Shown: positions 11,662-55,829 of the stretch, in pieces | How the letters are laid out: every line of letters starts with the position of its first letter | Position numbering within the stretch: the stretch's first letter is position 1 | Assembly: GCA_037127255.1 (NCBI GenBank) | Contig: JBANSL010000014.1 | Coordinates: forward strand, 72,337,646 to 72,401,645 | Source: Persicaria tinctoria | Taxonomy: Eukaryota > Streptophyta > Magnoliopsida > Caryophyllales > Polygonaceae | DNA length: 64,000 nt | Direction of reading: 5' to 3' | Notes under the pieces: generated by a model | What the model was told of the DNA's origin: nothing | What the model saw: only the letters and a program-made list of their open reading frames with translations | Database searches by the model: none | Program-made: the position numbers and the translations under genes

Positions 11662-13032
11662 CTTTTTTTTTGTACAGTAAGCAATAATAAGGAAGTCTTT
11701 ACAGAGAAAGATCATCCTTGCGAATGATGGTAGCTAGTTCCCTATTCAAAGGGAAGTTACATATAGAATCACATCTAGCAATGAAGTCAGCTGCTAAATT
11801 TGCCCCTCTAAAGCAATGACTGAAGGTTGTTGATGTGAATGCTGTGCGAATTCTTCCGATCTTCTCAATAACTCTAAGGATCTCCCATGGAATCATGACT
11901 TGGTCATTGATTGCCTTGACCACCGTAAGACTGTCTCCTTCGATTATCACTTGCGTCCAACCTCTTCGATGGGCTAGTTCTAACCTCAAACAAAAAGCAA
12001 GGGATTCAGTTAAGACTACTGATCCCTTTGGTACCTGTCTGTTGAGAATCTCAATTACTTTTCCATTCCAATCCCTAGCTATACATCCTACTTTGCAATC
12101 TCCATTTTTGTTAACCGATCCATCAACATTTATTTTGTAGACATTCCTTGGTGGCTTCTTCCATTTGATGTTCCTTCCTTGCCTCTGTATTTTATTGGGC
12201 GGTTTTATATTTTCCCCATCTTTCCAATTCTTTAAATTATCCAAGATTTGTCGTATTATGTGATGGGTAATGCTACTACTATCATTTATATTGCAATTCC
12301 TGAAAATAATATTATTCCTAGATTCCCAAATGTTTTGCCATAGAAAACATAAATCGTTAAAATTCTGGTTATTATTTTTTATTTGTTTAACATCTAGAGT
12401 ACTAGGAACAGAATTCAAATAGTTAAGAAGAGTTTTCCCTGTCTTGGCCTCATAGGCGTGGATCACAGCTTTCGTAAATTGACAGTTTTGAAAAAGGTGT
12501 AAGGAGTCCTCATCTTCCTGGTTGCACAAGAAACATTGGGAAGGGACCCTGTTAAAGTATTTGTTTAGTCGTAACTTTGTAGGTAGTGCATCCACTACTA
12601 TTTTCCAAATGAAGTTGCGAATCCCAGGAGGGACACCAAGCTTCCAAATCCACTAATGATTGTTATTAGTGGTTGCATTAATAGAATTTTGGTTTCGAGT
12701 CGAGTTAGTCTTAAAATTTCCATCCTTGTTATATTTCCAAATTAGTCTATCTTCGGCATCCCAAGTCGGAATGTCAATTGCTAGGATTTGATTGACCACT
12801 TGCGCAGGGAACATCTGAATTAGGAGTGGTTCATTCCATTTTTTGTTGGGTAAGATAAGGTTATCAACATTCATCTTAGGATCATGGTTATCTTGGAAAG
12901 GTTTAAGTGAGGTGTTCTCTATCCAGTTATTGTCCCAAATGTTGATATTTTGTCCATTCCCAATGATCCAAAGTAGACCTTGTTGGAATTGATCATTCAA
13001 TTGGATTAGTCTTCCAAATTGCCAGGACGTGT
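11662..13032 (-). mobile_element. 5'-truncated L1-type LINE on the minus strand (LINE-C)
   Basis: A 13-base target-site duplication, AAAAATTAACCCC, flanks it (11649-11661 and 13033-13045). Its poly-A tail appears as poly-T at 11663-11672. It contains the C-terminal end of ORF2 and lies inside the hairpin MITE, so the MITE is older. Compared with the other LINE relics here it is well preserved, with a single stop codon inside the retained frame. Confidence 0.8.
11699..13000 (-). pseudogene. LINE-C ORF2 C-terminus: zinc-binding and RNase H domains
   Basis: One frame is open from 13000 to 11699 except for a TAG at 12653-12655. In order it shows the WIIGNGQNINIWDNNWI segment, the GVPPGIRNFIWKI entry to the RVT zinc-binding domain, its CFLC..HLFQNC ligands, then an RNase H domain (INVDGS with the first catalytic Asp, TESLAF, IIEGDSL, and ANLAADFIAR). 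The natural stop is at 11699-11701. The reverse-transcriptase core lies upstream and was lost in 5' truncation. Confidence 0.8.
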
Positions 13033-13111
13033 AAAAATTAACCCCTTTTAATCATGCACATCCTTAAGGACGTGCATGATTTGGGGTGTATATAGCCGAA
13101 CCGAAAATTTT

Positions 13112-18859: not shown

Positions 18860-19051
18860 TGTTAATATATTGTATATATTTAATTAAGTTTGTTTTTCTG
18901 TTCAGTTTTTATATCCTACAAACTAGGTAGACTTAGTCTAAGTTAGTTGAGATTTTCTCCACCATCTCCTCCTCAACTCATGCCTTGTACTGCTATATAT
19001 TTGGAACGTTTACACTGATAATAAATCAGCTTTTGGTTCATCTATCTAACA
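18860..19051 (+). repeat. Copia-1 left LTR
   Basis: TGTTAATATATTG to TCTATCTAACA, 192 bp, with TG..CA ends. It contains a TATA-like CTGCTATATATTTGG in its second half and ends next to the primer site. Identical by eye to the right LTR. Confidence 0.9.
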
Positions 19052-19068
19052 TGGTATCAAGAGCAAGG
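19052..19068 (+). other. Copia-1 primer-binding site
   Basis: TGGTATCAAGAGCAAGG follows the LTR directly. It matches the plant copia initiator-Met tRNA primer site TGGTATCAGAGC with one extra A, as is frequent in copia elements. Confidence 0.8.
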
Positions 19069-19084
19069 TTTTGATTTTTTCCTG

Positions 19085-22000
19085 GTGTCCCTCCTCCTCC
19101 AAGCGATGGCCACCTCTTTACCCTCTGGGCAAATTCCTAACCCTGGAGAACCAAACAAACCCTTCCAAATAATCAATTTCCAAAATTGCCTCAAACTCAC
19201 ACCCACTAATTACATTACTTGGCTTAATCCAATCCGTTCTCTTTTGATTGGCCATGGACTCCTCTCCTATGTTGATGGCTCGATCTCAGAACCCACCAAG
19301 ACCATCACCACTAATGGTCAGTCGTCGCCCAATTCCGCCCACACTACTTGGCTTCGCCAAGATCAACTCCTCAAGGGTGGACTGATTGGCACACTCTCTC
19401 CCTCCGTCGCCTCTCTAGTGACCCGGGCATCCACCTCGCAGCAAGTTTGGAAGACCCTGGAGGATACCTACGCCAACCCTTCCAGAGCCCACATCGGTCT
19501 CCTCAAGGAGAAGCTCAACTCTACAACCAAAGGATCATCCTCCATCACAGAATTTATGCATCAAATCTCCGGGAACGCGGACCTCTTGGCCTCGCTTGGG
19601 AAGCCTCAAGATCCCGAGGACATTACCGACGCTGTCCTCAAAGGTCTGGATGCCTCGTATCAGTCCGTCATTGATGGTGTAAAGGCTCGAGATACGCCCA
19701 TCGACTTCCCGACCCTTCATCAAAAACTCCTAACCCATGAAACCTTTCTCCAGTACAAATCCAACCCTTCTCCCTTCCCGGCTTCTGCCATGGCCGCCCA
19801 ATCTGGCTACCGTCCTCCCAAGGGCAGAGGCAAGCCTCAGCCGTCTCCTTCCACTCCTCCGCCTTTTGATCACCACCGCCCACCGTCTCCAGTTGCACCC
19901 ACCGCCCCACCATCTCGCCCACCTCCCAAACCCTTCCTCGGTCGCTGCCAATGGTGCAAGACTCAAGGCCATGTCCTCGCCCACTGCCAAGCCTTCCGTT
20001 TGATAGCCCCTAACCTCCGCCCACCGGCCAACTATCCTCCCTCCCATAGCCCGCAGGCTCACGCAACCTCTGTTCATGCCTCTTCTCCACCCCAGCCACA
20101 GTGGATGTTGGATAGTGGATCAACTCACCATGTGGCAAAAGACCTCGACATCCTTGCCGAACATTATCCCTACGACGGAACGGATGAGCTCCAAGTTGGT
20201 AATGGTTTGGGTCTCCCAATTTCTAACATTGGAAACACTTTTTTACATTCTTCATCCAAACGTTTTAATGTTGATAATGTTTTGCATGTTCCTCATATTG
20301 CTAAAAATATTTTGTCAGTCTCCGAATTCACTACTCAAAACCAAGTTGAAATCTCATTTAAACCTACTTGTTTTGTTGTGAAGGATCTCTACTCGGGAAA
20401 TATCCTTCTTAGTGGCCCCGTCTCCGCCGGACTATACACTTGGCCTTCCTCCACTTCACCGACTGCATTCACGCTTCGCCGCTCACTTGGGACGGCTTGG
20501 CACCATCGTCTCGGCCACCCCTCAGCTTCTACTTTTCGTCTTTATAATTCTTTCCTGCCTAGTGGTGAATTGAACTCTTGTGTGGATTTTTGCAATGCTT
20601 GTTCTATCAATAAGGCCCACAAACTTCCTTTTCATGCTTCTACTATTACGTCTTCCGCACCACTTGAAGTTATATTTTCTGATGTTTGGACTTGCCCGGT
20701 TTTATCTTTTGATGGGTTTAAATATTATATTATTTTTGTTGATCATTTCACGAAATATATATGGTTTTATCCCCTCAAAAACAAATCGGATGTATTTCCC
20801 ATCTTTGTCAAATTCAAAGCATTGGTGGAAAACAAATTCAACTCCAAAATCAAAACTTTTTATTCTGACAATGGAGGGGAATTTATAGCTTTACGCTCCT
20901 TCCTCGCCTCAAACGGAATCTCTCATCTCACCTCACCGCCCCACACTCCACAACACAATGGCTTTGCCGAACGTCGACATAGACACATTGTGGAAACCGG
21001 CCTTTCTCTTCTCTCCCACTCAAGCATGCCACACAAATTTTGGCCTCTTGCCTTTCAAACGGCAGTTTATTTAATTAATAGAATGCCGACTCCAACTCTC
21101 CATAACAACTCCCCTTTTTATACAATTTTTGGAACAATTCCCAATTATCATAAATTAAAATGTTTTGGATGTTTGTGTTTTCCATGGTTGAGACCCTACA
21201 CCATTACCAAAATGGAACCGAACTCTGCCCCGTGTGTTTTTGTGGGTTACTCTCTAACCCAAAGTGCATACTATTGTCTCGATCCCAAATCATATAAATT
21301 ATATACTTCACGCCATGTGACTTTTGTGGAATCCACTTTCCCATTTGCTACACTTAGCCCACCTCCACGCAGTCCCACCCCCTCCCTGGCCCACCTTGGA
21401 CCCATCTCCTCAAGCCCACTCCCTACCGCTACTTCCACAAATGACGTCCCCAATCCTGCTCCCAATTTACAACAACCCTCTCCTCCCATACCGCCGACCA
21501 CGTCCTCCTCTCGCCCTCCCCCACTCACCCCTCCCGTCCGTCAAATTGTCACCCGCTCCATGAATCAAATATCCAAACCTCTCACCAGGCTAAACCTTCA
21601 TGCCATGGTCACCCCTTCCGAGCCGCAAAACATCACTCAGGCCCTCAAACACCCGGATTGGCGCCAGGCCATGACCGATGAGTACACTGCCCTCCTCTCG
21701 AACAATACATGGACCCTTGTCCCTCGCCACACCGCCTCCAATGTGGTGGGGTGCAAATGGGTTTTTCGGGTCAAAACCAACCCTGACGGTTCTCTCGATA
21801 AACTCAAAGCACGCCTCGTGGCCAAGGGTTTCCATCAGCGCCCCGGTTGTGACTTCACTGAGACTTTTAGTCCCGTTATCAAGCCGGTCACTGTTCGCAC
21901 TGTTCTTACTTTAGCAGTTCAATCCGGTTGGAAGCTCCGCCAAGTTGACATTAACAATGCCTTTCTTCAAGGTACTCTCGACGAAGATGTTTTTATGGAA

Positions 22001-23155
22001 CAACCTCCGGGGTTCGTTGACACTGCATTGCCGGACTCCGTCTGCAAACTCAATAAAGCCATATATGGCCTCAAGCAAGCACCGAGAGCATGGTATACGG
22101 AACTCCGCTCCTACCTCATCCAAACAGGTTTTGTTAACTCCATTGCTGACCCATCTCTGTTTATCTCTCGCCATAATGCCAATGTCATTTACATCCTCAT
22201 CTATGTTGACGATATTATCATTACTGGCAACCACCCACCCGCCCTAGATCGATTCATTTCTTCCCTATCCAACCGTTTCTCCCTTAAGGATTTGGGCAAT
22301 TTGTCCTATTTCTTAGGGGTTGAAGTTCAGGACACCACACATGGCCTCTTTCTCAGCCAACATAAATATATCCAGGATCTTCTTCTTAAGGCAAACATGT
22401 CCACTTGCAAACCTATCTCCACACCCATGGATGTATCGGCCTTCCTTACCAAAACCACCGGTACCCCTTTAGATAACCCAACTGACTACCGTGCCCTTGT
22501 TGGTAGTCTCCAGTACCTCTCCCTGACTCGCCCTGATGTTACGTTCGCAGTCAACAAGCTCTCCCAGTTTATGCAAGCTCCAACTTCTGCTCACTGGAGT
22601 GCCTTGAAGAGAGTTCTACGCTATCTACAGGGGACCATTACTTCTGGCATCAACATCCACAAAACTGGTTCTCGGGTGCTTCACGCCTTCTCCGACGCTG
22701 ATTGGGCTGGGAATAAGGATGATTACTCCTCTACAACTGGCTTCGTGTTCTTTCTTGGTCGCACCCCTATCTCATGGAGCTCCCGGAAGCAAAAGACGGT
22801 TGCTCTATCCTCCACCGAGTCTGAATACAAGGCCTTAGCGGACACATGTTCTGAACTTGTTTGGATCACCTCCCTCCTGGCTGAGCTTGGTGTCGATGAT
22901 ATACCTCAACCAGTCATCTTCTGCGATAATTTGGGGGCCAAACATCTCAGTGCTAATCCGGTCTTCCACTCCCGTATGAAACATGTAGCCTTGGCTTACC
23001 ATTTCATCCGCCAACAGGTCCAAGCTGGTTCCCTCAGAGTCTCCTATGTTCCGACCGCAGATCAGCTTGCCGACTGTCTCACGAAACCACTTCTTCGGGC
23101 TCGTCACTGCACTCTGATCACCAAGATCGGACTATCTTCACCCCGCCAATCTTGA
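19085..23155 (+). CDS. Copia gag-pol polyprotein
   Basis: A single 1356-residue frame without interruption. In order: Gag domain (about 30-260), CCHC zinc knuckle CQWCKTQGHVLAHC at 288-301, aspartic protease with DSG at 343-345, integrase (HHRLGHP zinc region near 473; catalytic D533, D595, E629), reverse transcriptase (from about 890, QVDINNAFLQG, YVDD at 1040-1043) and RNase H (SDADWAG near 1203, ESEYKAL near 1245, ending CLTKPLL). This is the Pseudoviridae order with integrase before RT. All catalytic residues I checked are present. It would make virus-like particles and the enzymes for retrotransposition. Start: ATG 19085 is 33 bases behind the LTR; ATG 19106 (MATSLPSG) is an alternative. 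Confidence 0.95.
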   Translation: MSLLLQAMATSLPSGQIPNPGEPNKPFQIINFQNCLKLTPTNYITWLNPIRSLLIGHGLLSYVDGSISEPTKTITTNGQSSPNSAHTTWLRQDQLLKGGLIGTLSPSVASLVTRASTSQQVWKTLEDTYANPSRAHIGLLKEKLNSTTKGSSSITEFMHQISGNADLLASLGKPQDPEDITDAVLKGLDASYQSVIDGVKARDTPIDFPTLHQKLLTHETFLQYKSNPSPFPASAMAAQSGYRPPKGRGKPQPSPSTPPPFDHHRPPSPVAPTAPPSRPPPKPFLGRCQWCKTQGHVLAHCQAFRLIAPNLRPPANYPPSHSPQAHATSVHASSPPQPQWMLDSGSTHHVAKDLDILAEHYPYDGTDELQVGNGLGLPISNIGNTFLHSSSKRFNVDNVLHVPHIAKNILSVSEFTTQNQVEISFKPTCFVVKDLYSGNILLSGPVSAGLYTWPSSTSPTAFTLRRSLGTAWHHRLGHPSASTFRLYNSFLPSGELNSCVDFCNACSINKAHKLPFHASTITSSAPLEVIFSDVWTCPVLSFDGFKYYIIFVDHFTKYIWFYPLKNKSDVFPIFVKFKALVENKFNSKIKTFYSDNGGEFIALRSFLASNGISHLTSPPHTPQHNGFAERRHRHIVETGLSLLSHSSMPHKFWPLAFQTAVYLINRMPTPTLHNNSPFYTIFGTIPNYHKLKCFGCLCFPWLRPYTITKMEPNSAPCVFVGYSLTQSAYYCLDPKSYKLYTSRHVTFVESTFPFATLSPPPRSPTPSLAHLGPISSSPLPTATSTNDVPNPAPNLQQPSPPIPPTTSSSRPPPLTPPVRQIVTRSMNQISKPLTRLNLHAMVTPSEPQNITQALKHPDWRQAMTDEYTALLSNNTWTLVPRHTASNVVGCKWVFRVKTNPDGSLDKLKARLVAKGFHQRPGCDFTETFSPVIKPVTVRTVLTLAVQSGWKLRQVDINNAFLQGTLDEDVFMEQPPGFVDTALPDSVCKLNKAIYGLKQAPRAWYTELRSYLIQTGFVNSIADPSLFISRHNANVIYILIYVDDIIITGNHPPALDRFISSLSNRFSLKDLGNLSYFLGVEVQDTTHGLFLSQHKYIQDLLLKANMSTCKPISTPMDVSAFLTKTTGTPLDNPTDYRALVGSLQYLSLTRPDVTFAVNKLSQFMQAPTSAHWSALKRVLRYLQGTITSGINIHKTGSRVLHAFSDADWAGNKDDYSSTTGFVFFLGRTPISWSSRKQKTVALSSTESEYKALADTCSELVWITSLLAELGVDDIPQPVIFCDNLGAKHLSANPVFHSRMKHVALAYHFIRQQVQAGSLRVSYVPTADQLADCLTKPLLRARHCTLITKIGLSSPRQS

Positions 23156-27433: not shown

Positions 27434-28007
27434 TGGTATCACAACCTTTTCTTCCTCACGGAACCCTAAACTGATCCTCCCGCCTCCCCTCTTCCCTTAC
27501 CGGCAAACGCCCCTCTTTTCTTCTCCTTCCTCGACCTGGAACCTGCCGCCGCCGGTAACCACGTACGCTACACCAACACCCATTCGACCGGATCCACATC
27601 CGATCTCCCTGCCCTTGCTCTCCGTTCTCCCTGCTCGCTCTCGCTGTCTCTCACGCCGGCCACCACTGCACACCACATCCGATCACCATCGACTCTCCGC
27701 CTCTGCCCTCGCTACTGCACTTGATCGTATAGTTAATTAGCCTTGCTAATTAATTAGGCACTTCGCGTTTGCCGTTTGCAATTTTGATCGAGGTCAACCT
27801 CAGCACCTTGGAATTCAAAGTAAACCCAGCCCCCATCAATTTGCTTTCATAAAAAAAAAAAAGATGCAACCGTATTTCGGATATCCTGCCCCTCGTCATG
27901 CCGGTCCTCACGCCTATCTGACATCGTCTGATCCAGGCTCTGTTCCGCCTGCTATGCACCACGCCTTCTCCTCTACGCATCCGACATTCCCCGACACTTC
28001 TTGATAC

Positions 28008-31000
28008 ATGGACACTGGTGCCACCTCCCACATGACGAACTCCTCAGGTAACCTCTCATCTATTTCTTTTAAAGGCCATGCCCACTCTATTATCGTCGGA
28101 AATGGTGGTCGTCTTGCCACTTCGGGGATTGGCCACGCCACATTACAGACCCCAACCCACCCACTACACCTCAACAATGTCCTTATTGCCCCAAAGATTG
28201 TCAAAAACCTTATCTCTGTCCGTCGGTTCACTACTGACAACAACGTTTCCCTTACGTTTGATCCCTACGGTTTCTCTGTGAACGATCTTACTACGGGGGT
28301 TACTCGCATGAGATGTAACAGCACCGGGGAGCTCTACCCTGTTACACCACCACCCGCGTCCAGTCAGTTGTGCCCGGTCGCCCTCTCGGCATCGTCGTCC
28401 AGCCTGTGGCATGCACGCCTGGGCAATCATAGTGTTGCCGTTCTAGATGTCCTCCGTTCTCAGAGCCTTATCACCTATCCTAAAGACCCACGCTCTGGTT
28501 TATGCTCTTCCTGCCAACTAGACAAACATGCCAGACTGCTGTTCCAACGGTCTTTGACCTCTACCCTTGCTCCCTTTGATATCATTCACAGCGACATTTG
28601 GACCTCTCCCGTGCCTAGCAAGGAGGGTCACAAGTACTACCTCTTGTTTCTTGATGATTATACTCATTACTTATGGGTCTTCCCGTTGCATTTCAAGTCC
28701 CAAGTGTTTCCTATCTTTGCTAGATTCCATACCTACATCAAAACACAGTTTCACATGTCCATCAAATGTTTCCAATGTGACAGTGGCCGTGAATTTGACA
28801 ACAAAGACTTTCACTCCTTCTTTGCCGCAAATGGGATCTCCTATCGCTTGTCTTGCCCCTATACTTCTTAGCAGAATGGCAAGGCAGAAAGAATCATCAG
28901 AACCATTACCAACATGATGCGATCTCTCCTCTTTCACGCATCTATTCCCCTTCCCTATTGGCCTCACGCCTTATCCACCACATGTTATCTCCTAAACATT
29001 CTCCCTTCCACTACCCTACACCATCGCTCGCCAGCTCATACACTTTATTACGCTGAGCCTAGGTATGATCACCTTCGCACCTTCGGGTGCTTGTGTTTCC
29101 CAAACCAGTCCTCCACAGCCACGCACAAGCTTCACCCGCGCTCCACTCCATGTGTCTTCCTAGGCTATCCATCTGATCATCGCGGTTACATTTGCCTCGA
29201 TATCAAGACCCACAAGATCATTCTCTCACGTCATGTCACCTTTGATGAGTCGCGATTTCCCTTTGCGTCTCCCACACCCCCTGTGTCTCCGTCAGAGTCC
29301 GAGTCACCATTCCCTCACTTTCTTTTTCCCCAGAGCTCTCCCGGTGCTCTTGCTTCTCCCCCAACACCACCACCACCACCACCACCACCCACCACCAGAC
29401 CACACACCCGCAGCGTCTCCGGTGTCTTCCGACCCCGTCAGATCGTCTCCATGACCACCGCCCATCACCCCGCTATCCACCTCCCATCACCCCGCCAAAC
29501 AGCCTCCCGTCACCTACGTGCGGCGCCCGCAGCATGGCATGCGGCGCCCGCCGCATGTACAAATGCTGCGCCCGCAGCCTTAAACCCTTCCCTGGCGGCG
29601 CCCGCCGCATGTACAAATGTTGCGCCCACAACTTTACACCCCTCCCTGGCGGCGCCCGCCGCAACCCTCGCCGCCTTTGACCCGCCCGATGCCTCTTCCC
29701 CTTGCTTAGTCCCTCTTGCCCCCGTCCTTCCCGACTCCCATTCACCATCTGCCCCCACCCAGACCTCCCTCTCCCCCGTTCCCACCTCCCACAAAACAGC
29801 CATCCTCGATCCGAATTGGCAGGCGGCTATGCTCGACGAATACAGGGACCTTACGAAGAATGGTACTTGGGTTCTTGTTCCTCGCCCTCCTGAGGCGAAC
29901 GTCATTCGCTGTATGTGGCTTTTTCGTCACAAGTTCCGCTCTGATGGGACGTTGGAGCGCTACAAGGCCCGTCTTGTGGTGAACGGTAGATCTCAACATG
30001 TCGGTATTGATTGTGATGAGACGTTTAGCCCTGTGGTCAAGCCTGCCACTATCCGAGTGGTCCTGAGTCTGGCTTTTTCGCGCAACTGGGCCATCCATCA
30101 GTTAGATGTCAAGAACGTCTTTCTGCATGGTCATCTGAACGAGACAATTTACATGTTTCAGCCGCCGGGGTTTACTGATGCTGAGCGTCCAAAGCATGTC
30201 TGTCTCCTCAAGCGCTCTCTATATGGTCTGAAACAGGCTCCGCGGGTGTGGTTCCAGCGTTTTGCCTCTCATCTGCTCCGTTTGGGTTTCACTGGCAGTC
30301 GTTCGGATACGTCTCTGTTTATCTATCGCAGAGGCTCAGACTTGGCATTCCTGCTGCTTTATGTCGACGACATCATTCTCACAGCCTCTTCTGATGCTCT
30401 TCGGACGTCGATAATCTCGCAGTTGAGTGCGGAATTCGCCATGTCTGATCTGGGTCAGTTGTCTTACTTCTTGGGAGTTGCTGTTCAGCGGCATGCGTCT
30501 GGTCTGTTTCTCTCACAAAGTAAGTATGCTGCAGAAATTGTTGCTCGGGCTAAGATGGTCAACTGTAATCCCGTCGCAACCCCAGTCGATACATCCAACA
30601 AGCTCAGTGCTCATTCTGGTCCTTTGGTTGACGATCCCACACTGTACAGAAGCCTCGCCGGTGCTCTTCAGTATCTCACTTTCACCAGGCCTAATATTAG
30701 TTACGCCGTTCAGCAGATCTGCTGTTCATGCATGCCCCTAGGGAACCTCACTTTCAGGCTTTGAAGTGGATCATTCGGTACATCAGCGGCACCGTCGAGT
30801 TCGGCACCACCATCACTCCTTCCTCTAAGCTTGATCTTGTGGCTTACACTGATGCGGATTGGGGTGGTTGTCCAGACACACGTCGCTCCACGTCTGGTTA
30901 CTGTGTCTTCCTCAATGACACTCTTGTATCTTGGTCAGCCAAGCGTCAGTCCGCCGTGTCTCGCTCCAGCGTTGAAGCCGAATACAGGGGTGTTGCCAAC

Positions 31001-31297
31001 GTTGTCTCCGAGTGCTCTTGGCTCCGCAATCTCTTGCTTGAGCTACGTTGCCCCTTGCAGAAGGCCACTCTGGTCTACACTGACAATGTCTCCGCCGTCT
31101 ACCTGGCTAGCAACCCAGTCCAGCATCAACGCACGAAGCACATTGAGCTTGATCTCCACTTCGTCAGGGATAAGGTTGTCATTGGACATGTCCGCGTTCT
31201 ACATGTCCCGTCCTCTTATCAGTACGCTGATATATTCACCAAAGATTTACCTAGACAGTTGTTCATTGATTTTCGTATTTCACTTAACAACAAAATC
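28008..31297 (+). pseudogene. Copia-2 pol pseudogene
   Basis: In order: protease starting YMDTGATSHMT (DTG active site), GAG-pre-integrase zinc region (LWHARLGNHS, CSSCQLDKH), integrase core (SDIWTSP, CDSGREF), reverse transcriptase (LDVKNVFLHG, LYGLKQAP, YVDDIILT) and RNase H (YTDADWGG, VEAEYRG, FTKDLPRQLF). A TAG at 28869-28871 breaks the integrase before QNGKAER, and a frameshift near 30725-30730 separates reverse transcriptase from RNase H. The order and motifs are ordinary copia. It cannot make a functional polyprotein. Confidence 0.85.
29520..29672 (+). repeat. Ala/Pro-coding tandem repeat inside Copia-2
   Basis: Two to three imperfect units of about 65 bp built around GGCGGCGCCCGCCGCA, translating to alternating APAA segments. 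They lie in the low-complexity linker between integrase and reverse transcriptase, a region that is variable in copia elements. Confidence 0.65.
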
Positions 31298-31373
31298 TAC
31301 TTTAGTGAGTTTCATGTCAATCATTTTTTAAATTATTTTCAAATATTGACTACATGAAAATTTGTGGCTATTA

Positions 31374-45557: not shown

Positions 45558-46080
45558 AAGCACATACATATAGATTGGAAGAAAAGAAAATAAAAGGTTG
45601 ATTTTTTTTTTGGGTCGAAAAAAGGAAAAGAAAAGTAGATGGAACATTCATTTGTATCTTGTTGTGTCTATCCCCATCCTGGCATCCTTGACATTTTCTT
45701 GTATATTAGAACGGTCAAAAAATGGCGTCGGCCGAAGATTATTATATTTTCAATTATTCTCTCTGTTTTTTTTTTTTTTAAATCAGAAGTGAATTTTCAA
45801 TTAAAATCGAAAGGCAATTAAAAAATCAAATTAAATAGTACAACTGGTCTCTAACTGTTTTCATTTTCTATCTCCATCGTATATTTGGAAGGTGGTGTCG
45901 ATGGCATTTTCAGTCCAGATATAGATCGATCAAAAAAGGTGATTAAATTAGTTGTCTATCGTCATCTAATACACGTAATTAATCGACTTAAAGAGTTAAA
46001 GTTATATCTGTCTCCCATTAGTAAAACTTGGTTTCGGTTGGCCAGTTCTCGTATTTTTTGCTCCGTCTTTTATTTTTTTA
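45558..46080. other. AT-rich spacer left of the Mutator-like element
   Basis: No gene or element recognised. Contains poly-T runs near 45601 and 45769. Confidence 0.45.
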
Positions 46081-46180
46081 TAAGGCATAGGTTAAAAAGG
46101 TTAATTTTCTCCCCAATTTAGTTATTGTCCCCCAACTATGTCAAATTGGGCTTTTGTCCACCTAAATTTTGTTGGATAAA
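46081..46180 (+). repeat. Left terminal inverted repeat of the MULE
   Basis: It aligns, with roughly 30 percent mismatch and small gaps by eye, to the reverse complement of 55330-55422. The most conserved block is GTCCACC followed by AATTTT. The outer end is uncertain by several bases. Confidence 0.6.
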
Positions 46181-46189
46181 ATTGCCCTC

Positions 46190-46199
46190 CCATATATAA
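46190..46199 (+). promoter_or_regulatory. TATA box of the Ulp1-like gene
   Basis: CATATATAAG lies just inside the left inverted repeat and about 140 bases before ATG 46341. A CT-rich leader follows at the expected distance. The promoter would thus lie in or next to the terminal repeat, as is usual in MULEs. Confidence 0.55.
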
Positions 46200-47782
46200 G
46201 GGTTTATGCTGCAAACCGCTCTCTCTCTCCTCACTCTGTTCTTCTCATCGCGTCCGTCGTACAATTCGCTCTATTCTCTCCATTTTCTTCGAAGTCACTG
46301 TTGCGGTTGAAACCGGCGGTTTCTTTTCGATTATGTTCCAATGGCAGAGAACAAAGTCTCCGGCGACATCGAGGGACCTGCTGTTGCTGCAATCGACGAT
46401 AAACATTCAAGCGATCCTTCAAATGGCGGTGTGTTATCTGTGTTTATAATTTTATACTTGTTTTGAAGTTGAAACCGACAGTTCTTTTCAATTTTTGTCA
46501 AGTTTCAGAGAACAAGGACTCCGATGAGAGGGAAGCAGTTGATGTTGCCGCGGTTGACAGTAAAACTGGAAGCGATTCGGCAGATGACGGTTTGTATTCT
46601 GTGTTTATGTCTTTTATGCATGTTTGTCATTTTTCCCCCCTTATTACTGTGTTTGATATCAAATGTGTCTGATTTGCAGTGAAGAAAAGCTCTTCTGAGA
46701 AGGTTCCTTCAGTTGAAGGTAGCAGTTCATCCGGTCCTTCAAGCAGAGGTGTGTTGTTATTGTTCTAAAGTTTTGTGTTTATGTTTTTCCAGGCCTTTGT
46801 TGTGTTTTTCTATCAAATGTATACATGCATTTGGTAATTTTTCTTTGATTTTAGCATAAATGCATATTTCAGCATAATCTGTAAAAGACCTATATTCAGC
46901 AGATGTTGTTATTCATGCTGAAACTGTTGTTGTGTATTCTTTGTGTGTGTTTTTTAGATGATAATGCCTCTGCAAGTGATCTTCAAGAATATAAATGTCA
47001 ATTCGATGTGAGTATATATTTTTTTTCATACCTTATCCCCCTTTTTGTGTGTTTTTATGTTTATTCATGTTTATGAATGTGTCTTTTTAACAGAGATTGG
47101 AGTATTGCATTCCTGTAAAGGATAGATTTTGTGCAAAATCCAATGTTTACTGCGCCCCAGATGTCTGTAATGTTATAGAGAAACATCTGTCTGAATCTGA
47201 TTTTGAGTTGCTGAGGAGAAGCTGCTTTGGATGGGTTTTTGTTCAAAGAGATAAGATGAAACTTAATTTTCAGTTGATTCATCAAATGATGGTTCGTTTG
47301 ATTAAGAGTGATAAGCTGCATGAATTGTGGTTCAAGGTTGATGGTCCAGTTGCTCGGTTCTCTTTGGTAGAGTTTCATGCAATTACAGGGCTTCCTGTCA
47401 TAGATACTTTAGTTAAACCGCCCGCGAAATTTGCATGGTCTCATTTTCTTGGGCAGAAGCAGTCAAAGTGTACGTACGATGAGTTGTTGGAGACATTTAA
47501 AAGATGTAGAAAATCGTCTCCAAAGAAGCTTCAGATGGCAAAGTTGTTGATTATCGAGAAAATGTTGTTGTTCAAGCGTTCTAAAAGTGTTAAGAAAGAT
47601 CATGCTGCTCTTGTATGCAATCCAACGAAATGTGAATTGTATCCATGGGGGAGGTTGTCTTATTCTTTGGTTGTGAAGTATTTAAAGAAGGTTCTGGATT
47701 GTGATCGATCTGATCCGAGACCATCATATGAATTGTTTGGATATATTTATGCTTTTCAGGTAATTAACTTCATGCATATATG

Positions 47783-47853
47783 TTTCAGCATCTGTTTGTT
47801 TCAGCATTTATGTTTCAGCAAAGTTTGTGTTTCAGCATCTGTATGTTTCAGCA
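47783..47853 (+). repeat. Five TTTCAGCA motifs in an intron
   Basis: Within intron 5 of the Ulp1-like gene, TTTCAGCA occurs at 47783, 47799, 47813, 47830 and 47846, at spacings of 14-17 bases. Spacer sequences such as TCTGTTTG and TCTGTATG recur, so local duplication contributed. This is the densest cluster in the element. Confidence 0.9.
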
Positions 47854-48862
47854 TCTGCTTGTTTGGTTATATTTGTAGGCTTGGATACTAGAGGCTTTCC
47901 CGGTGATTTCTGATAAGTTTCTTTGCGATTTCAAAGTTCGTGTGGGTGATCCATATTCTCTTCGTTGGGAGTGTAAGTTACGACATACTTACATTGAAGT
48001 GCAAGAGTTGTTTGATGGTGATGTGGTATAATTTTTGTCTCAGCTCTATCTTCATACAATCTTCTTTTTTTATTAAGTTCATTTTTATAATTTCAGTTGT
48101 CTTATTGTGTGTTAATATTGTTGGTTGTGTAGGCACCCATGTTCCCAACTTTTGGGGAGTTTGCAAGGTCCCCAATGATGGTCTTTAAAGATGAAGTTGC
48201 TCACCCCATTCTTGATCACATGACTGAACCTGTATTTTCCCAACCTGAGGCAGATAAGTTGTATGATTGTTGGAGACTTAGGACAAGAGCATATTGGAGC
48301 CGGTTCAATTGCTATGCAGATGGTGATTTATCATTGGATATACCTTTTGCTGAAACCCATGGCGAAGAATAACAAGAAGTCAATGAAGAGTCAGGTGGAA
48401 ATGAAAGTGGAGGTGCTGCAGGTTCGAAGAAGCGAAAGTCTGCGAGTAAAGCCCTGTCATTGGTGAAGAAACAGAAGATTGAAACAAGCAAACCTACCAC
48501 AACGCGGAGAGGTCGGTCTGCTGGTTTAGTTTTAGCTAAACAAGCTGATGTCATCTCCAAATCTCCCTGTGAAATTGGTTCTACTAAAAAAAAGACAAGG
48601 GGTAAAAAAATGTCAGCTGCAAAGAAACCACCAACCGTTGAAGATGCAATTGCGAAACCTAGGTTTGTATTTCGTAAGAGAGGTAAATCTGTTTCTGAAG
48701 ATTCTAGTGATTTGTTTATGCCAATTGAAGTTGCATGTCCATCCTTTCATCGAGTTGCTGAAACTGGATTGAGGCCGCCCATCGAAGTTGCATATGCAAA
48801 GGATTCTTTGTTATTTAAGGATGGGAATGACGATGGTAATGATAGAGTAGCAGAGGGTCCCC

Positions 48863-48878
48863 GGGGGGGGGGGGGGGG
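48863..48878 (+). repeat. 16-G homopolymer with frameshift
   Basis: A run of 16 G interrupts exon 7 of the Ulp1-like gene. The frame before it ends shortly after the run in SRRR and a stop, while the frame one base later continues for about 400 codons. A homopolymer length change, biological or technical, explains it. Confidence 0.8.
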
Positions 48879-50116
48879 TGGCTCGAGGAGGAGATGATGC
48901 AATGGATGTTGAAACTGATGAATACATAAACAATGAAGGCACTGAGAACGTTGCCAGAGATGATCACTTGGAAGGAGCGGGGAAGAATGTGGGTGGTGTT
49001 CAGACTGATGATTTCAGCAAACAAGGGGGACATCCTAGCTGGTTGAAAGAAATACAGATGAGGTTAGATAAGCTTGAAGAGTTGCCTCAAAGAGTCTCTG
49101 ATTTATCTGCGAGGGTAGAGATGCTTGAGGAACGTTTGTTAGGATGTTTAAAGTTGGTGGATGTTGTTGATGATCTGCTGAAGAAGGTAGATTCCTTAGA
49201 AAATAAGTTTACAATGCAAGAGTCAATGCAATTTAAGACCCAGTCATCTAATGTTGCAACTTGTGACCTAGTGATTTCAAAGGCTGTGAATGAGGTGTTG
49301 GATGAAATTCGGGAAGAGGTACCTACTGAGATTCTAGGTCAACCAATTGGTACAAATGTTTCAGCATCTGTGAATGAGATTATACCTATTACCCTTGTTG
49401 AAGGGCAGAAGTCATTAGATTCATCTTCACGGCATGTATATGTTGTTGACTTAGGGCGCGACTCTGATTTTGAATTGAAGGGTGGGGAACAGTGCTTAGA
49501 TGATGGCATTTCTGTTGGGTTGAGGAAGGTGGTGGGTGGTCCTGAAGTAAAGGTTGCTGGACCTGAAGTTGCTGAAACAAAAGTTGTTAAAAGTAAAGTT
49601 GCTGAAACCAAGGTTAATGCAACAGAAGATGTTGAAGCCAAAGCTGATGGAATAGAAGATGCTGAAATGGTTGATGCTGAAGCTGCATCACCTCATGGCC
49701 AACTAGTCAAAGATGCTGAAATGGGTGATGCTGAAGGTGGTGTTGATGCAACAAAAGATGCTGCAACCAAAGATGTTGCTGGTGACTTAATGACCCCACC
49801 CCCTGGAAAAACAATACATTTAAGTGATGGTGAAAGTGATGATGAAAACTTGGTGAAGAAGCCATGCACTCAGTGGGATACAATTTTCAAAGATCCTAAA
49901 TGTGTGGAAGAAATTGAAGACTTCAGGCGTTCAAAGCGTCTTCCAAAAGCAAGTAGTTTTCTGTTGAGCCCGTTTGATGCTGAAAAGGTAAGGATCCCGA
50001 AGCATGTTGAAAAAAAATCATTGCTCAGCAAGGTTGATCATGACTTCATGTATCAATGTGTTAAAAGCTCAAGGTATGTCCATCTTAAATTTTCATGTGT
50101 GTTTTCGAGTGCTCTA

Positions 50117-50118
<2 letters not shown>

Positions 50119-50208
<90 letters not shown>
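50119..50208. repeat. (TA)n microsatellite in intron 7
   Basis: About 45 TA units lie in the seventh intron of the Ulp1-like gene, just after the donor at 50074. Reading through them gives a meaningless Ile-Tyr repeat. Confidence 0.9.
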
Positions 50209-50210
<2 letters not shown>

Positions 50211-51152
50211 TGACCTGATTTTTTAATCTTGTAATAATAATAATATGTGCAGGGATTTTTCAGTACTTTTAATGGGATCTAGAAAAGAGAAGTCATTTTT
50301 TAGGAACATTGTTAGGAAGGATGGTTGGCTTGATATAGATGTAAGTATGATGAAACTGTTTTTCTTTTCAGCATCTTTTCGAGTAAATGTAACTATGTAT
50401 GTATTTTTGTTAGTATGATTTTCAGCACCTTACACTGTTTACTATTTCAGAACCTTGAAGCTGGACTGGTTCACATGAGGAAGAGAATCACTGAGGATCC
50501 TAGCAGATTTGAAGGCATTGTCGTGATGGATCCTATTTTTCATCAGAAATATCTTCCAGAATGCACGTCATCTTACGAAGAAACAACCCCTGTTGAACAA
50601 TTCACTGCTAGCTACTTCCTGGGCTTATATCCTAGTGATTATCCCAAGAGTTGGGAATCTGCAAAAAAGGTCTACACCCCATTCAACATAAACAATGAGC
50701 ACCGGATTGCATTGGAGATAAATCTTGCTGAAAAGGTTATAAATGCATATGACTTCAACCACTACATTGTGTCTGCTGAAAAGCTTGTTGATCATCTGCG
50801 CGCGATGGCTGAGTGGTTGCCAATTCACTTGGATAAGGTTGGTGTGATCCCAAATTTTCAACCGTCTACATTCCACATTAACAAGGTCCCTGATCTAGTG
50901 CACGATACAAAGGGGTATGGAAACCTACACAATGTTTTTAAAGTCATTTAGAAGCATTATGTTGTTGTGCTTGTTATCAATATGTTTTGTTTCATTTTTT
51001 GCAGCGCATCTTGTGGGGTCTTTGTACTGAAAGCAATCGAGGCACTGGTGTTTGGGGGAGATGTCAGGAAGTTTACCAATGAAAGAATCTTTCGATACCG
51101 AGAACTTATGGTCTCAGACTTGATTCAAGAGAAATGGAGCTTTAAATTCTAG

Positions 51153-51964
51153 CTAATAGCATCTTTTGTGTAACGCCGTCTATCAGATTTAGGGATTTCA
51201 AGACATTCTAATGTAGCTGTGGTTTAGTTGTATTTCCGTGGGATATTCTGGACAACTGTTGGTCTTTTGTACCAATTTGGATGCGTTTTCAGTGGAACTC
51301 TTTGAAGCCAATGGAATTGACATTTTATCCAATGTTTTAATGTAAATTGTGTATGCATTCCTGGTTCAGCATTGTTTTCTGCAAGTTTGTTTTAGCAAAT
51401 ATTTCAGCAAGTATTTCAGCAAATACTTCACCATATCTGTTTGCTGAAACAGTTTATAAGTTAACCAAAAATCAAAATCATCATTATTTGTCTGTATCTA
51501 TCTGGTGTTGAGCTTATTAAATAGACATTTAGTTAATGGTATAATGTAAATTGTTCAGTTTTCCTGTTTCAGCATTTTGTTTCAGCAAGTTATGTTTTCA
51601 GCATTCTGTTCAAGTTGACACCAACATACACTGTTAAGTTGCCATATTTTAGAGAAACACAGAAATATAATCTCAAAAAAGGGCACTTATTGCGTCTGTT
51701 AAGGTGACATAGTTGTTCAAGTTATGTTTTCAGCATTTTCCATCAGGATGTTGTTTTCAGCACATTTTTCATGCTGAAACAGAGAGGATTGTCTAGATCA
51801 AAGCTTAAGCATAGCAATAAATGGTAAACATAATGAACTAAAAATAATATGATATAGTAAAGCAATGACACAGAGTACAACTGATTAAAAAAAACACAAA
51901 GCATCTCATAAAATTCATATCAGATTGCTGAAACAGTGTAAAACTGAACTAAAAATTAAAATCA
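51153..51964. other. Region between the two convergent MULE genes, rich in TTTCAGCA
   Basis: Non-coding DNA between the Ulp1-like stop and the most distal possible end of the transposase frame. It holds ten exact copies of the 8-mer in either orientation (51402-51933) plus near-matches. The 3' ends of both transcripts must lie here. Confidence 0.75.
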
Positions 51965-54555
51965 TCATATTTTTTCTGTAGCCAGCTGGTGTTGAGCTTT
52001 TGAATTCTTCTCGTGCTCCCTTTGAAGCCATTCCTTACTGTATTTTGCTCTTCTCACAAACTCTCCCTTGGAAAGTTTCCTTTTATAAGGAGGTCGACCA
52101 CATCTCTTCCTTACATTGGGGGGGGGGGGGGGTTAACATTTAATCTGTTTAATATATTCAGGAAGGTTTATTTCATCATCAGGGAGGACTGGATATATGG
52201 TTTCAGCATGTGCTAAAATCCAAGCTTCATTTGTGTAGAAACTAGCAACAAAATCTAACACATCAAGCCTTTTAGACACTATTGCCGACAGAGCATGTAT
52301 GCATGGGATTTTTTTAATGTCAAACACTCTACAGGTGCATTTTTTTGCTGGAAGATCAACAACAGTCCGCGTACCTTCTCCAGTAACCTCAAAGACAGAC
52401 TCATTCAAGTGCTTTACAGTGTATGCACCGACATCCTTTTGCAATTCCTGGATCATTTTCATTATTGCAGGGGCGACTCTTTGTGTATTCAGTGCTGCAG
52501 ACTTCCTTCTCTCTTGAGACCACTTTGTGAACTTATCTCTAAAAAATTCCAACAGTGCAACAATGGGCAAAAATTTTTTACCACTCAAAACAGAGTTTAA
52601 GCTTTCAGCGTTGTTGGATGTCATCATGTTATACCGATTACCCTTTGCATGTGCTCTTTCCCACCTCTCCAGCTCCGCGGATATCAAATATGTTGCTAGG
52701 CTTGGGCATTCTTCTTTTATACGGCCAAATTGGTGTGCAAAATCACCAACAGTGTAGGTTTTAGCAGCCTGTTGGAACATGTCTGCAAGATGCCTTTTCT
52801 TGAAAGTTGCTTGGATGTTCTGCTTCAAAATCCACATGCATACGCAGTGGGTAGCATTAGGGTATATCTTTTTGATAGCCTTAGAAATGCTGGAATGCCT
52901 ATCAGAAACAAACACCAAATCATCTGTAGGTTGTATAACTTTACTGAGTTGCTGGAAAAACCACTCCCAAGATGCATTATTTTTTGTGTCAACAATCCCA
53001 ATAGCAAGCGGGTATAATTTCATATTTGCATCTTGGGTAACTGCTCCAAGCAATGTACCCTTATATTCCCCTATTAAGAATGTGCCATCTACTACAACAA
53101 CCTACAAATAAGATGGGAACAATTTAAATGCTGAAATCATCATAATTTTGCTAAATTATAAATGATTATGTACATATACATACATTTTTTAAGATGGGGA
53201 ATGCTCTAATGGATTGTCCATAAGACAGGAACAAGTATTCAAACCTTTCAGCACTGTCTGTTTTAATGAGAGCTACTGTTCCGGGATTTTTCTCCATAAG
53301 AATGTGACAATATGACGGCAAGGCGGCAAAATTTGATTCCGGTGACCCTTTTTCTCTCACTTGAGCTATTCGCGCTGACTTCCATGCCTTGCAATAAGTA
53401 ATTGAGATCTTGTGGTCTGTTCTCATCTTATCAATAATTTGTTTTGGGTTGTATCCACTGTTGAAAACACAGAAATTAGTAAATGACTGCTAAAAAAACT
53501 ATCAATTACTTATTCGAATGAAAGCTTAAACTAACAATAAATATAGTGCTGAAATGAAAGCTGAAACTAATATGCTGAAATTAACTGCTGAAACAGTATA
53601 CACCTTGATTGCATGAGGCTGGCAATAACATTGGATGGTGCATGCCTGCAGTGTCTTGTTCTTGTATCCCATGTGTATGTGTGTATATCTCTATACAATA
53701 TCACCTCATGACAAATAGCTGAAATTCTCTTTGTATGCAATTTTCAATCACAATTTCTGTCTATGTATACTGCTCTATAATATTTTGGTGTTGATTTTTT
53801 AACCTCAAATCCAAATATGTCTGTCATAGACATAATGTATAGAGCATCATTTACTGTCTGTCTAGATTCAAATGTTTTTCCAACATACATAACCCTTGGG
53901 CATTGAGTGACACAGTTGATAATACTGTCCGTGATAGAGCTTCCAACACCCCTTTTATCAACTGTGTTCCCTTTTCTTTTCATCATGGCATAGCGCTCAT
54001 TCCAATACCCATCATTGGAGTTATCTGAAAATGATTCACTGTTTTCAGCATTAGAGGAATATGAAAATCTATCAGCATCCATATCGTCTTGTGGCACATC
54101 CTGAATCTCATAAAAAATAGAGATATTTTCTATTATATCCATATTGCTGCTATATCTCTCATCAGTTTCAGCAGTAAGTGTGTTTATGGCAGAAGCATCT
54201 TCGCGAAATTGAAATTCATGGACAACAATATCCAATGGCAAGGTGTTTGTGACACACAACTCTACGGAAAAATTCACTCCATCCAGCTTACTCAACAACA
54301 AGAATTCTTTTAAATCAGCATCAGAATCTACCTTAAGCGTGCTTTCAATGTCTTGAAGGCGTGCAAATGGCTGAATTTCAATTCAACTGATTCATCAACA
54401 TTGAATCTGCTGCAAACCTTGTCCCTCAAGGTTAATAAAGTGATTGAATCCTCTAGCACAAAAGCTTTTGAAGTAGTGTTTCCATCGAACAGTAATCCTG
54501 TTTCAGCAACTCTGCACTTTCCTCCATACGCAACAGTTACAATGTTTGATGACAT
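51965..54555 (-). pseudogene. Mutator-like transposase (MULE, SWIM zinc finger)
   Basis: Three exons read right to left: 53604-54555, 53184-53457 and 51965-53101, with GT-AG introns of 146 and 82 bp in phase. Exon 1 starts MSSNIVTVAYGGK and holds an acidic region and the MuDR DNA-binding domain. Exon 3 opens VVVVDGTFLIGEYKGTLLGA (first catalytic Asp), continues with VFVSDRHSSISKAI (second Asp) and TSNNAESLN (probable Glu), then the SWIM finger CTCRVFDIKKIPCIHAL, and finally a basic GRPPYKRK tail. Lesions: a one-base frameshift near 54355, a TGA at 53744-53746 in place of a conserved Trp, and a TAA at 52133-52135 ahead of the basic tail. The enzyme would cut and paste the element via its inverted repeats; this copy cannot encode it intact. 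Confidence 0.85.
52118..52132 (-). repeat. 15-C homopolymer behind the transposase stop
   Basis: On the coding (minus) strand 15 C follow the TAA directly. They equal five Pro codons and keep the frame open into the basic C-terminal tail. The poly-G run at 48863 in the partner gene is similar in length. Confidence 0.8.
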
Positions 54556-55329
54556 TCCTACCCCTACAATTCATTGTTTGACAGTATTAAAGTACTTGAA
54601 ATATAATTTGAATGCGTTTCCGCAAAAACGAACATTGCACCAAAAAACAGAGTTGTTGAAACAATTCAAAAACAGATAACTGCAATCCACATGAGATCAA
54701 TATTCCACAGTTTCAGCAATCGAAAACGATAGTTTCATTCCACATGCTAATGTTATATAGAAAATCGAAACACATACCTGCAGAAACACTTTTAGTAGCA
54801 ATAAAAAAAACCGAAATTCTGTTAGTTTCAGCAGATCTGGTAGTGCAAAATCAAAATAATTTCGTAGAAACTTTGCGCCTTCACAACAGATCACAACAGA
54901 AAGTATTGAACTAATCAATTGATAGAAAGTATTGATCTATAAGCGGTCACAACAGAAACAATATAAACGATCATAACATATCTGTTGCAACGTTACTTGT
55001 AGCAGAAAAATCGAAAATCCGTGTTTCAGCAAACCGAAATTCTGTTAGTTTCAACGATCACATCAGATCTGTAATGAATCAATAGCATAATCAAAAGTTC
55101 GAAGAACATTGCTGAAGAATAGTCCAAAATTACAGGAAAAAACGAGCGATAATGCTTACTTTGTCGATATGCTTACGTAGTTGAAGCAATTCAGCAATAT
55201 ATTGATTGATTGAGCAACATATCGATCGTTTATAGCAGATAAGCAAAAAACAATCAATTTACAGCAGCGAGGATGAAGAGGAGGATGCTTGTGTGGCAAG
55301 TTTTTCGGCATGTTTCGTTTTCAGCATGT

Positions 55330-55422
55330 TGAAAAATTCGGTGGACAAATCCCAAATATGGAGAGGTTGGGAGACATATTCCTAATATAGTCCAAAATCG
55401 TGGCCTATATGGTAAACGCCCC
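55330..55422 (-). repeat. Right terminal inverted repeat of the MULE
   Basis: Reverse complement aligns with 46081-46180. Read outward to inward on the minus strand it begins GGGGCGTTTACCATATAGGCC, a typical MULE-like GG-start. The last TTTCAGCA motif (55319-55326) lies directly inside it. Confidence 0.6.
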
Positions 55423-55829
55423 ATTTTATTTTGTAGGAGAATTGTGTTTTTTTAGTTCAATAAATAGCTAAAATAATTAGGCTCTGTGTGGCACCACAAG
55501 TAAATTTTCGGAGTTTTTTTATTTTAATATTATAAAGTTTCCAACGAGATAAATATATAAGATTTTATTGTAATTAGCTCTTCAAATTAGATTTTCAACA
55601 GCTACCTATATATCTCAAAATTTTCAGAATTTTTCTTTTTTTATTCACAAATCTATTCATTTTATCATTTCTCATCGGCTAATTTGTACCGGTTAATCTA
55701 TAAGGTAAGATTAACAAACATTGTATCAGCTTCAGCTACTCCATAGTCTATGTGTTAGCAAACTCATTTACCTTATATATTAGTAGTCCATCGATTTATA
55801 TACATACAATGCTTGGATTTTTCACATTA
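55423..55829. other. AT-rich spacer
   Basis: No gene or element recognised between the MULE and the next Helitron. Confidence 0.5.

What the first reader, a model, noticed from the sequence alone, without database searches (positions are those of the whole stretch)
46867..55326. One 8-mer, TTTCAGCA, is strewn over an entire Mutator-like element
Reading both strands I count 43 exact TTTCAGCA/TGCTGAAA (26 and 17 on the plus strand) between 46867 and 55326, plus near-matches such as ATTCAGCA and TTTTAGCA. Chance would give well under one in 8.5 kb. In the other 55 kb I noticed only three (17579, 17734, 56150). The motif lies in introns, exons, the intergenic part and the leader, and its last copy lies directly inside the right inverted repeat. 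Precedent: VANC anti-silencing proteins of Arabidopsis VANDAL MULEs bind short words that accumulated in their own elements. A similar self-recognition code, read by the Ulp1/DUF1985 protein or the transposase, is my inference; this word in this element type may be undescribed.
Basis: partly seen in the sequence, partly recalled or inferred. Interest (0 to 1): 0.92.

Follow-up and report, generated by a model that had tools for sequence, protein, structure and literature searches.

The report
Jumping gene's self-recognition DNA word
A plant jumping-gene family is peppered with one eight-letter DNA word, even inside its protein-coding parts and in short relatives that share only its ends, most likely so that a protein it encodes can find it and protect it from being switched off by the host.

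Summary

The word is family-wide: six copies chosen by transposase alone hold 16-25 in 3.7 kb each. Eight loci of other DUF1985 families in the same genome hold 0-1 and show other enriched words. A 2.3 kb non-autonomous element sharing only the termini has 16.

The DNA word itself seems to be kept. Exonic words exceed a codon-shuffle expectation (16 against 3.1), their synonymous sites barely change among siblings, and noncoding words stay intact more often than control octamers.

Best explanation: a VANC-type self-recognition code read by the DUF1985 protein. Binding and demethylation are inferred, not tested. The kind is known from Arabidopsis VANDALs; dense use inside exons and enrichment in a non-homologous relative make this a new variant.

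The parts
46103..55422 (.). Whole Mutator-like element as bounded by homology to siblings; in the window copy the outermost left nucleotides (about 46077-46102) differ from siblings, and a one-mismatch 9-bp duplication (CTTTTATTT / ATTTTATTT) would place its left end near 46077
   Evidence: sibling alignments start at 46103 in 6 copies; of 14 right ends 11 lie at 55422-55426; exact 9-bp duplications read by eye in L130, L134, L139, L144
46126..46170 (+). left terminal inverted repeat arm (degenerate)
   Evidence: 73% complementary to 55332-55376; gapped alignment starts at 46118
55332..55376 (-). right terminal inverted repeat arm (degenerate)
46508..51149 (+). DUF1985 + Ulp1-like gene, hand model with about nine exons; window copy has an in-frame TAA at about 48370 and a frame change at a G tract near 48863
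   Evidence: Pfam PF09331 5.3e-20; PF02902 7.4e-4, just below its cut-off; three-frame reading
47095..47758 (+). exon with the DUF1985 domain, homologous to VANC21
47759..47879 (+). intron with five TTTCAGCA; the same stretch has 2-4 in 11 siblings and 8 in L147, where the segment is duplicated
49560..49790 (+). exonic repeat region, word read as T GCT GAA A (Ala-Glu); L153 has five words at a 15-bp period
51989..54546 (-). MURA-type transposase gene (MULE domain, SWIM finger), hand model; window copy has a frame change near 54365 and a TAA before the C tract near 52120
   Evidence: PF10551 3.2e-22, PF04434 3.3e-8; reading frames
46867..55326 (.). 43 exact copies of TTTCAGCA/TGCTGAAA, 26 on the plus and 17 on the minus strand
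51402..51933 (.). cluster of ten words between the 3' ends of the two genes (11.9 per kb of that spacer)
54711..55326 (+). four words upstream of the transposase gene; the last lies just inside the right inverted repeat

Best explanation
TTTCAGCA (perhaps TTTCA[G>A>T]CA) is the cis-acting recognition word of this MULE family. It is read by the family's own VANC-type protein, the DUF1985+Ulp1 gene product, whose DUF1985 domain has the fold of the VANC21-DNA complex. Many words per copy recruit the protein along the element and counteract host DNA methylation and silencing; other DNA is spared because it lacks dense words. The words multiply by tandem duplication in introns and spacers, and are kept in exons where reading frame and splicing allow (as Ala-Glu). 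A non-autonomous relative has the same word in unrelated internal sequence and so could profit in trans. Shown: family-wide enrichment, scarcity in other DUF1985 families, DNA-level retention, array turnover, enrichment in a non-homologous relative, homology to VANC21. Inferred: binding of this word by this protein, loss of methylation, mobilisation.
Confidence: 0.75

Rival explanations
1. The word is a binding site of the transposase or of a host transcription factor, used for transposition or for driving transcription of the element.
For: DNA-level retention and presence in a non-autonomous element would also follow from a transposase or activator site; four words lie upstream of the transposase gene.
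Against: Words are not gathered near the ends: none in the first 764 bp, most in introns, the central spacer and exons. Enriched words differ between families of DUF1985 elements, although their transposases differ too. The structural match of the DUF1985 domain is to VANC21 in complex with its target DNA.
Confidence: 0.13
2. The words are a by-product: minisatellite-like slippage multiplied one segment and inheritance spread it; no protein reads it.
For: 16 of 43 words lie in tandem arrays, and array length varies among copies.
Against: 27 of 43 lie outside arrays. Noncoding words are retained above control octamers. Synonymous sites inside exonic words change about six times less than elsewhere. 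Codon shuffling does not reproduce the exonic count. A non-autonomous element has the same word in other repeat units.
Confidence: 0.06
3. The word acts in RNA, as a splicing signal (TTTCAG resembles an acceptor; the GAA-bearing reverse complement resembles an exonic enhancer) or as a small-RNA decoy.
For: Strand choice follows transcripts: 12 of 13 intronic words read TTTCAGCA in the sense strand, 2 of 16 exonic words do (Fisher p 2e-5).
Against: No word coincides with an acceptor of my hand model, though two modelled acceptors end in TTTCAG. The word is dense in the intergenic spacer and in a non-autonomous element without homology to the genes. Sense bias is also expected if an orientation-free DNA word must avoid creating acceptors or stops.
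Confidence: 0.06

Closest known systems
VANDAL21/Hiun and VANC21 (Arabidopsis thaliana), word YAGTATTAY
   Same: MULE with a transposase gene and a DUF1985 gene; a short word accumulated at high density in the element's own copies, in same-direction tandem arrays in introns and spacers with variable repeat number; DUF1985 homology and fold
   Different: Different word; here 16 of 43 words are in coding exons and seem to be kept there as DNA, while in VANDAL21 the word is mainly noncoding (PMC5735166); here the DUF1985 gene also has an Ulp1-like part
VANDAL6/8 and VANC6, words AGTTGTCC / AGTTGTAC
   Same: Another family with another word; VANC6 words also occur in an unrelated element type (AT9TSD1) that responds to VANC6 (PMC5735166), as L128 shares the word here
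   Different: Different word; response of L128 not tested
KIU / Kaonashi: Ulp1-carrying VANDALs (described in the review PMC13317346, passages seen)
   Same: DUF1985-type protein with an Ulp1 part in a MULE; the review says such VANDALs recognise their own motifs
   Different: Primary paper (Sasaki 2022) not held, so its words and their positions could not be compared

Membership tests
Mutator-like element (MULE) | MURA-type transposase | tested here: met
   PF10551 3.2e-22, SWIM 3.3e-8, PF00872 6.5e-7
Mutator-like element (MULE) | target-site duplication of about 9 bp | tested here: met
   exact 9-bp duplications read by eye in siblings L130, L134, L139, L144 (not found by eye in L147) and in L128; the window copy itself only with one mismatch
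VANDAL-type (VANC-carrying) MULE | encodes a DUF1985 protein homologous to VANC | tested here: met
VANDAL-type (VANC-carrying) MULE | family-specific short word at high density in its own copies | tested here: met
VANDAL-type (VANC-carrying) MULE | words in tandem arrays with variable number | tested here: met
VANDAL-type (VANC-carrying) MULE | words mainly in noncoding DNA (as in VANDAL21) | tested here: not met
   16 of 43 exonic by hand model; density still about 3-5 times higher in introns and the spacer than in exons. This is a trait of VANDAL21 rather than a requirement for working like it
VANC anti-silencing system | the protein binds the word and causes loss of methylation of the element | not testable with these tools
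   needs binding assays and bisulfite sequencing
KIU (Ulp1-carrying VANDAL) | Ulp1/C48 domain in the DUF1985 gene | tested here: inconclusive
   PF02902 E 7.4e-4, 19.8 bits against a cut-off of 20.7; catalytic-type H, D and SCG positions seen by eye, the triad recalled, not from a call

The most novel reading that the evidence does not exclude
In one plant genome several DUF1985 MULE families run parallel, mutually foreign self-recognition codes. In this family the code has invaded the coding exons so far that DNA recognition, rather than protein function, shapes codon choice and the Ala-Glu content of both proteins. Short non-autonomous relatives have re-created the code in unrelated sequence to share the protection.
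Probability: 0.55. Interest if true: 0.8.

Novelty: new variant of a known kind. Interest (0 to 1): 0.7.

Why it matters
VANC anti-silencing, worked out in Arabidopsis, is a case of a transposon that protects itself by sequence-specific recognition. This element, in another plant genome, offers a strong natural word, sister families with other enriched words, and a short element that shares little but termini and word. That makes it directly testable how DUF1985 proteins change specificity, whether word density alone is enough for protection, and how far a DNA-binding code can override protein-coding constraint.

Tried and rejected
Transposase in viral contigs: 3 stretches matched a pattern, none confirmed. 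Protein database: 7 MULE transposases at 28-41% identity, six named, all Brassicaceae; only the 7,996 candidates sharing most words were scored. Two searches with the DUF1985 protein found nothing. Single-sequence fold of the DUF1985 exon was useless (mean pLDDT 37.7); the ten-sequence alignment gave 61.9. Foldseek alone gave no match with E <= 0.001. Search for the letters TTTCAGCA: 1,971 papers, 10 listed, none about transposons by title. Helical phasing of words: no support. For that reason I lowered the probability of the novel case from 0.6 to 0.55 and the confidence of the best explanation from 0.76 to 0.75. L123 has the word pair in DNA without homology to the element (2 words in 3 kb). 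The words of other DUF1985 families were picked post hoc among the most enriched 7-mers; L159's is weak (CCTGTCA, 7 in 6 kb) and L160 also has an unrelated one (TACTCGA, 10). L161 and L162 are 94-95% identical copies of L157 and L158, hence not independent; between them words are retained 10 of 11 and 13 of 13, against 0.72 and 0.79 for all words of that length.
Full report
OBSERVATION. An order-4 Markov model of the remaining window predicts 0.42 on average, at most 4 in 300 simulations; a model trained on the element predicts 15 on average, at most 27. In the 8.5 kb tiles that do not span the cluster no complex 8-mer exceeds 9.

THE ELEMENT. Pfam finds DUF1985 (5.3e-20), a sub-threshold Ulp1/C48 domain (7.4e-4), and on the other strand a MULE transposase (3.2e-22) with a SWIM finger. 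Reading frames give a DUF1985-Ulp1 gene on the plus strand, about 46508-51149, and a transposase gene on the minus strand, about 54546-51989 (hand models without transcripts). The window copy has lesions in both genes. The genome of the window (1.68 Gb, 221 contigs, unnamed) could be searched. The 322-residue transposase exon has 124 scored matches (a lower bound), many at 90-95% identity without internal stops. Twenty siblings fetched through a word-pair pattern (174 hits in the genome against 0 for the reversed pattern) all align to the element (mean identity 74-94%, 23-98% of its length). Their alignment sets the ends at 46103 and about 55422, and exact 9-bp target duplications are readable in four of the five siblings whose two ends were both compared (by eye). 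The terminal inverted repeats are degenerate (73%), as described for VANDALs (PMC10398659; part 1 of 6 and passages seen).

FAMILY-WIDE AND FAMILY-SPECIFIC. The twenty siblings hold 10-45 words each in 10 kb loci. Since they were found through the word, six more copies were chosen by transposase similarity only; they hold 18, 19, 17, 17, 25 and 16 words in 3.7 kb each. A search for DUF1985 in the genome scored 150 loci (a lower bound), all at 98.9 bits or more, against 72.3 for the window's exon. Eight of the 150 were read in part (4-6 kb). They show no nucleotide homology to the element (six tested; the other two are copies of these), 25-32% identity in DUF1985, and 0, 0, 0, 1, 0, 0, 0 and 1 copies of the word (L155-L162). 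They are rich in other words: ACATGAC in L157 (15 in 6 kb, 1.4 expected) and its copy L161 (15 in 4 kb); TGTCAC in L158 (21, 3.3 expected) and its copy L162 (13 in 4 kb), and in the related L155, L156 and L160 (16, 20, 11). L159's word is weak. These words were chosen post hoc, so this part is suggestive; their retention between copies (10 of 11; 13 of 13) exceeds the average of 0.72 and 0.79.

DNA-LEVEL RETENTION. Against the twenty siblings, noncoding words are intact in 265 of 392 comparisons (0.676), control octamers of equal G+C in 0.476 (p 0.0004); without the four seed sites of the search 202 of 322 (0.627, p 0.013), and 232 of 322 against 0.52 if position 6 is left free (p 0.001). A/T sites inside words change 2.5% against 6.7% outside in noncoding DNA and 1.0% against 5.8% in exons. 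Position 6 (G) changes about as much as CAG/CTG sites elsewhere (16% in noncoding, 22% in exonic words), mostly to A. In 200 kb of sibling loci there are 566 TTTCAGCA, 136 TTTCAACA and 86 TTTCATCA, where about 13, 9 and 24 would be expected from the rest of the window (half a count added).

THE WORD INSIDE CODING SEQUENCE. 16 words are exonic; 14 of them, in two genes on opposite strands, are read as T GCT GAA A, Ala-Glu. Of 20 Ala-Glu pairs 17 are GCT GAA and 14 are the whole word. Shuffling synonymous codons within each gene, which keeps protein and codon usage, gives 3.1 +- 1.5 words, never more than 9 in 2000 trials, against 16. In these 14 words the wobble sites changed in 8 of 589 cells (1.4%), against 8.6% at wobble sites elsewhere, 6.6% at A/T wobble sites, and 8.0% and 6.7% at the third positions of GCT and GAA outside words. 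Resampling whole sites gives p 0.0009 and, against A/T wobble sites, 0.007. The second codon position that falls on word position 6 changed in 47 of 197 (24%). That is far above all second positions (6.1%, p 0.002), but only modestly above the C of exonic CTG outside words (265 of 1491, 17.8%), so much of it is context; one word (50726) supplies 15 of the 47. The plain octamer test for exonic words is not significant (149 of 225 against 0.586, p 0.18). Still, synonymous sites that the genetic code leaves free are the ones kept, while the amino-acid-changing site is not protected, which points to the DNA word. None of these tests corrects for shared ancestry of copies.

ORIENTATION. Intronic words read TTTCAGCA in the sense strand in 12 of 13 cases, exonic words in 2 of 16 (Fisher p 2e-5). 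An orientation-free DNA word whose strand is filtered by splicing (TTTCAG could make an acceptor) and by reading frame explains this; base composition was not controlled for. Among noncoding words neighbours tend to share direction (6 switches, 11.3 expected, p 0.013; for all 43 words 16 against 20.6, p 0.09).

TURNOVER AND NON-AUTONOMOUS RELATIVES. The intron 47759-47879 holds 5 words in the window, 2 to 4 in 11 siblings, and 8 in L147, where the exon-intron segment is duplicated. L153 has five exonic words at a 15-bp period. Of the eight loci cut out around the first pattern hits, six share the interior of the element, L123 has no homology, and L128 shares only the termini. L128 is an element of about 2.3 kb with both terminal repeats of the family and a 9-bp duplication (by eye). 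It has 16 words, in repeat units that I could not relate to the element (blastn and five protein pieces). A 551-bp piece of its interior has 54 matches in about 40 places of the genome, itself included. It looks as if the word was built up twice under the same termini, unless the interior is an old copy diverged past recognition.

COMPARISON. Hosaka et al. 2017 (PMC5735166; parts 1-3 of 6 and passages read) show that VANC21 binds YAGTATTAY, mainly noncoding and dense in VANDAL21 only; that VANC6 targets AGTTGTCC/AGTTGTAC; that arrays gain and lose repeats; and that the unrelated AT9TSD1, which holds the same words, is hypomethylated by VANC6. The review PMC13317346 (passages read) says that Ulp1-carrying VANDALs recognise their own motifs. 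Sasaki et al. 2022 (EMBO J), the paper most likely to hold similar cases, is not held, so novelty against it is unchecked. Different from what I read: the word itself, its dense use in exons with retained synonymous sites, and its enrichment in a non-homologous non-autonomous element beside sister DUF1985 families with other words.

VERDICT. A real, strong and family-specific DNA word, retained as DNA, in a VANC-carrying MULE. The mechanism is inferred by homology.

Noticed in passing
L130, L134, L144 left ends: Sibling left termini carry an inverted repeat, GAGAAAATTTGCGCC-GAAG-GCGCAAATTTTCTC (one base different in L130), that the window copy lacks or has lost.
   Followed up: partly
L128:~951-1025: A tRNA-like stretch (by eye) inside the non-autonomous element.
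   Followed up: no
window 48863 and about 52118: Homopolymer tracts (about 15 G, 14 C) inside exons of the window copy where the reading frame is disturbed; could be assembly error or decay.
   Followed up: no
L147 (intron region): Duplication of part of the DUF1985 exon together with its word-bearing intron.
   Followed up: no
L155-L162: Most of the other DUF1985 loci read are rich in words that share TGTCA (TGTCAC, TGTCATGT), one step from the TTTCA of this family; the codes may be related by descent.
   Followed up: partly
L123 (one search hit, TTTCAGCAGAAGCTTTCAGCA): A word pair in DNA without homology to the element; the same 21-mer recurs elsewhere in the list.
   Followed up: partly
window 19025-23152, 28005-31354, 11702-13051: Long open frames that look like copia-type and LINE-type retroelement proteins (by eye; no family search).
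   Followed up: no
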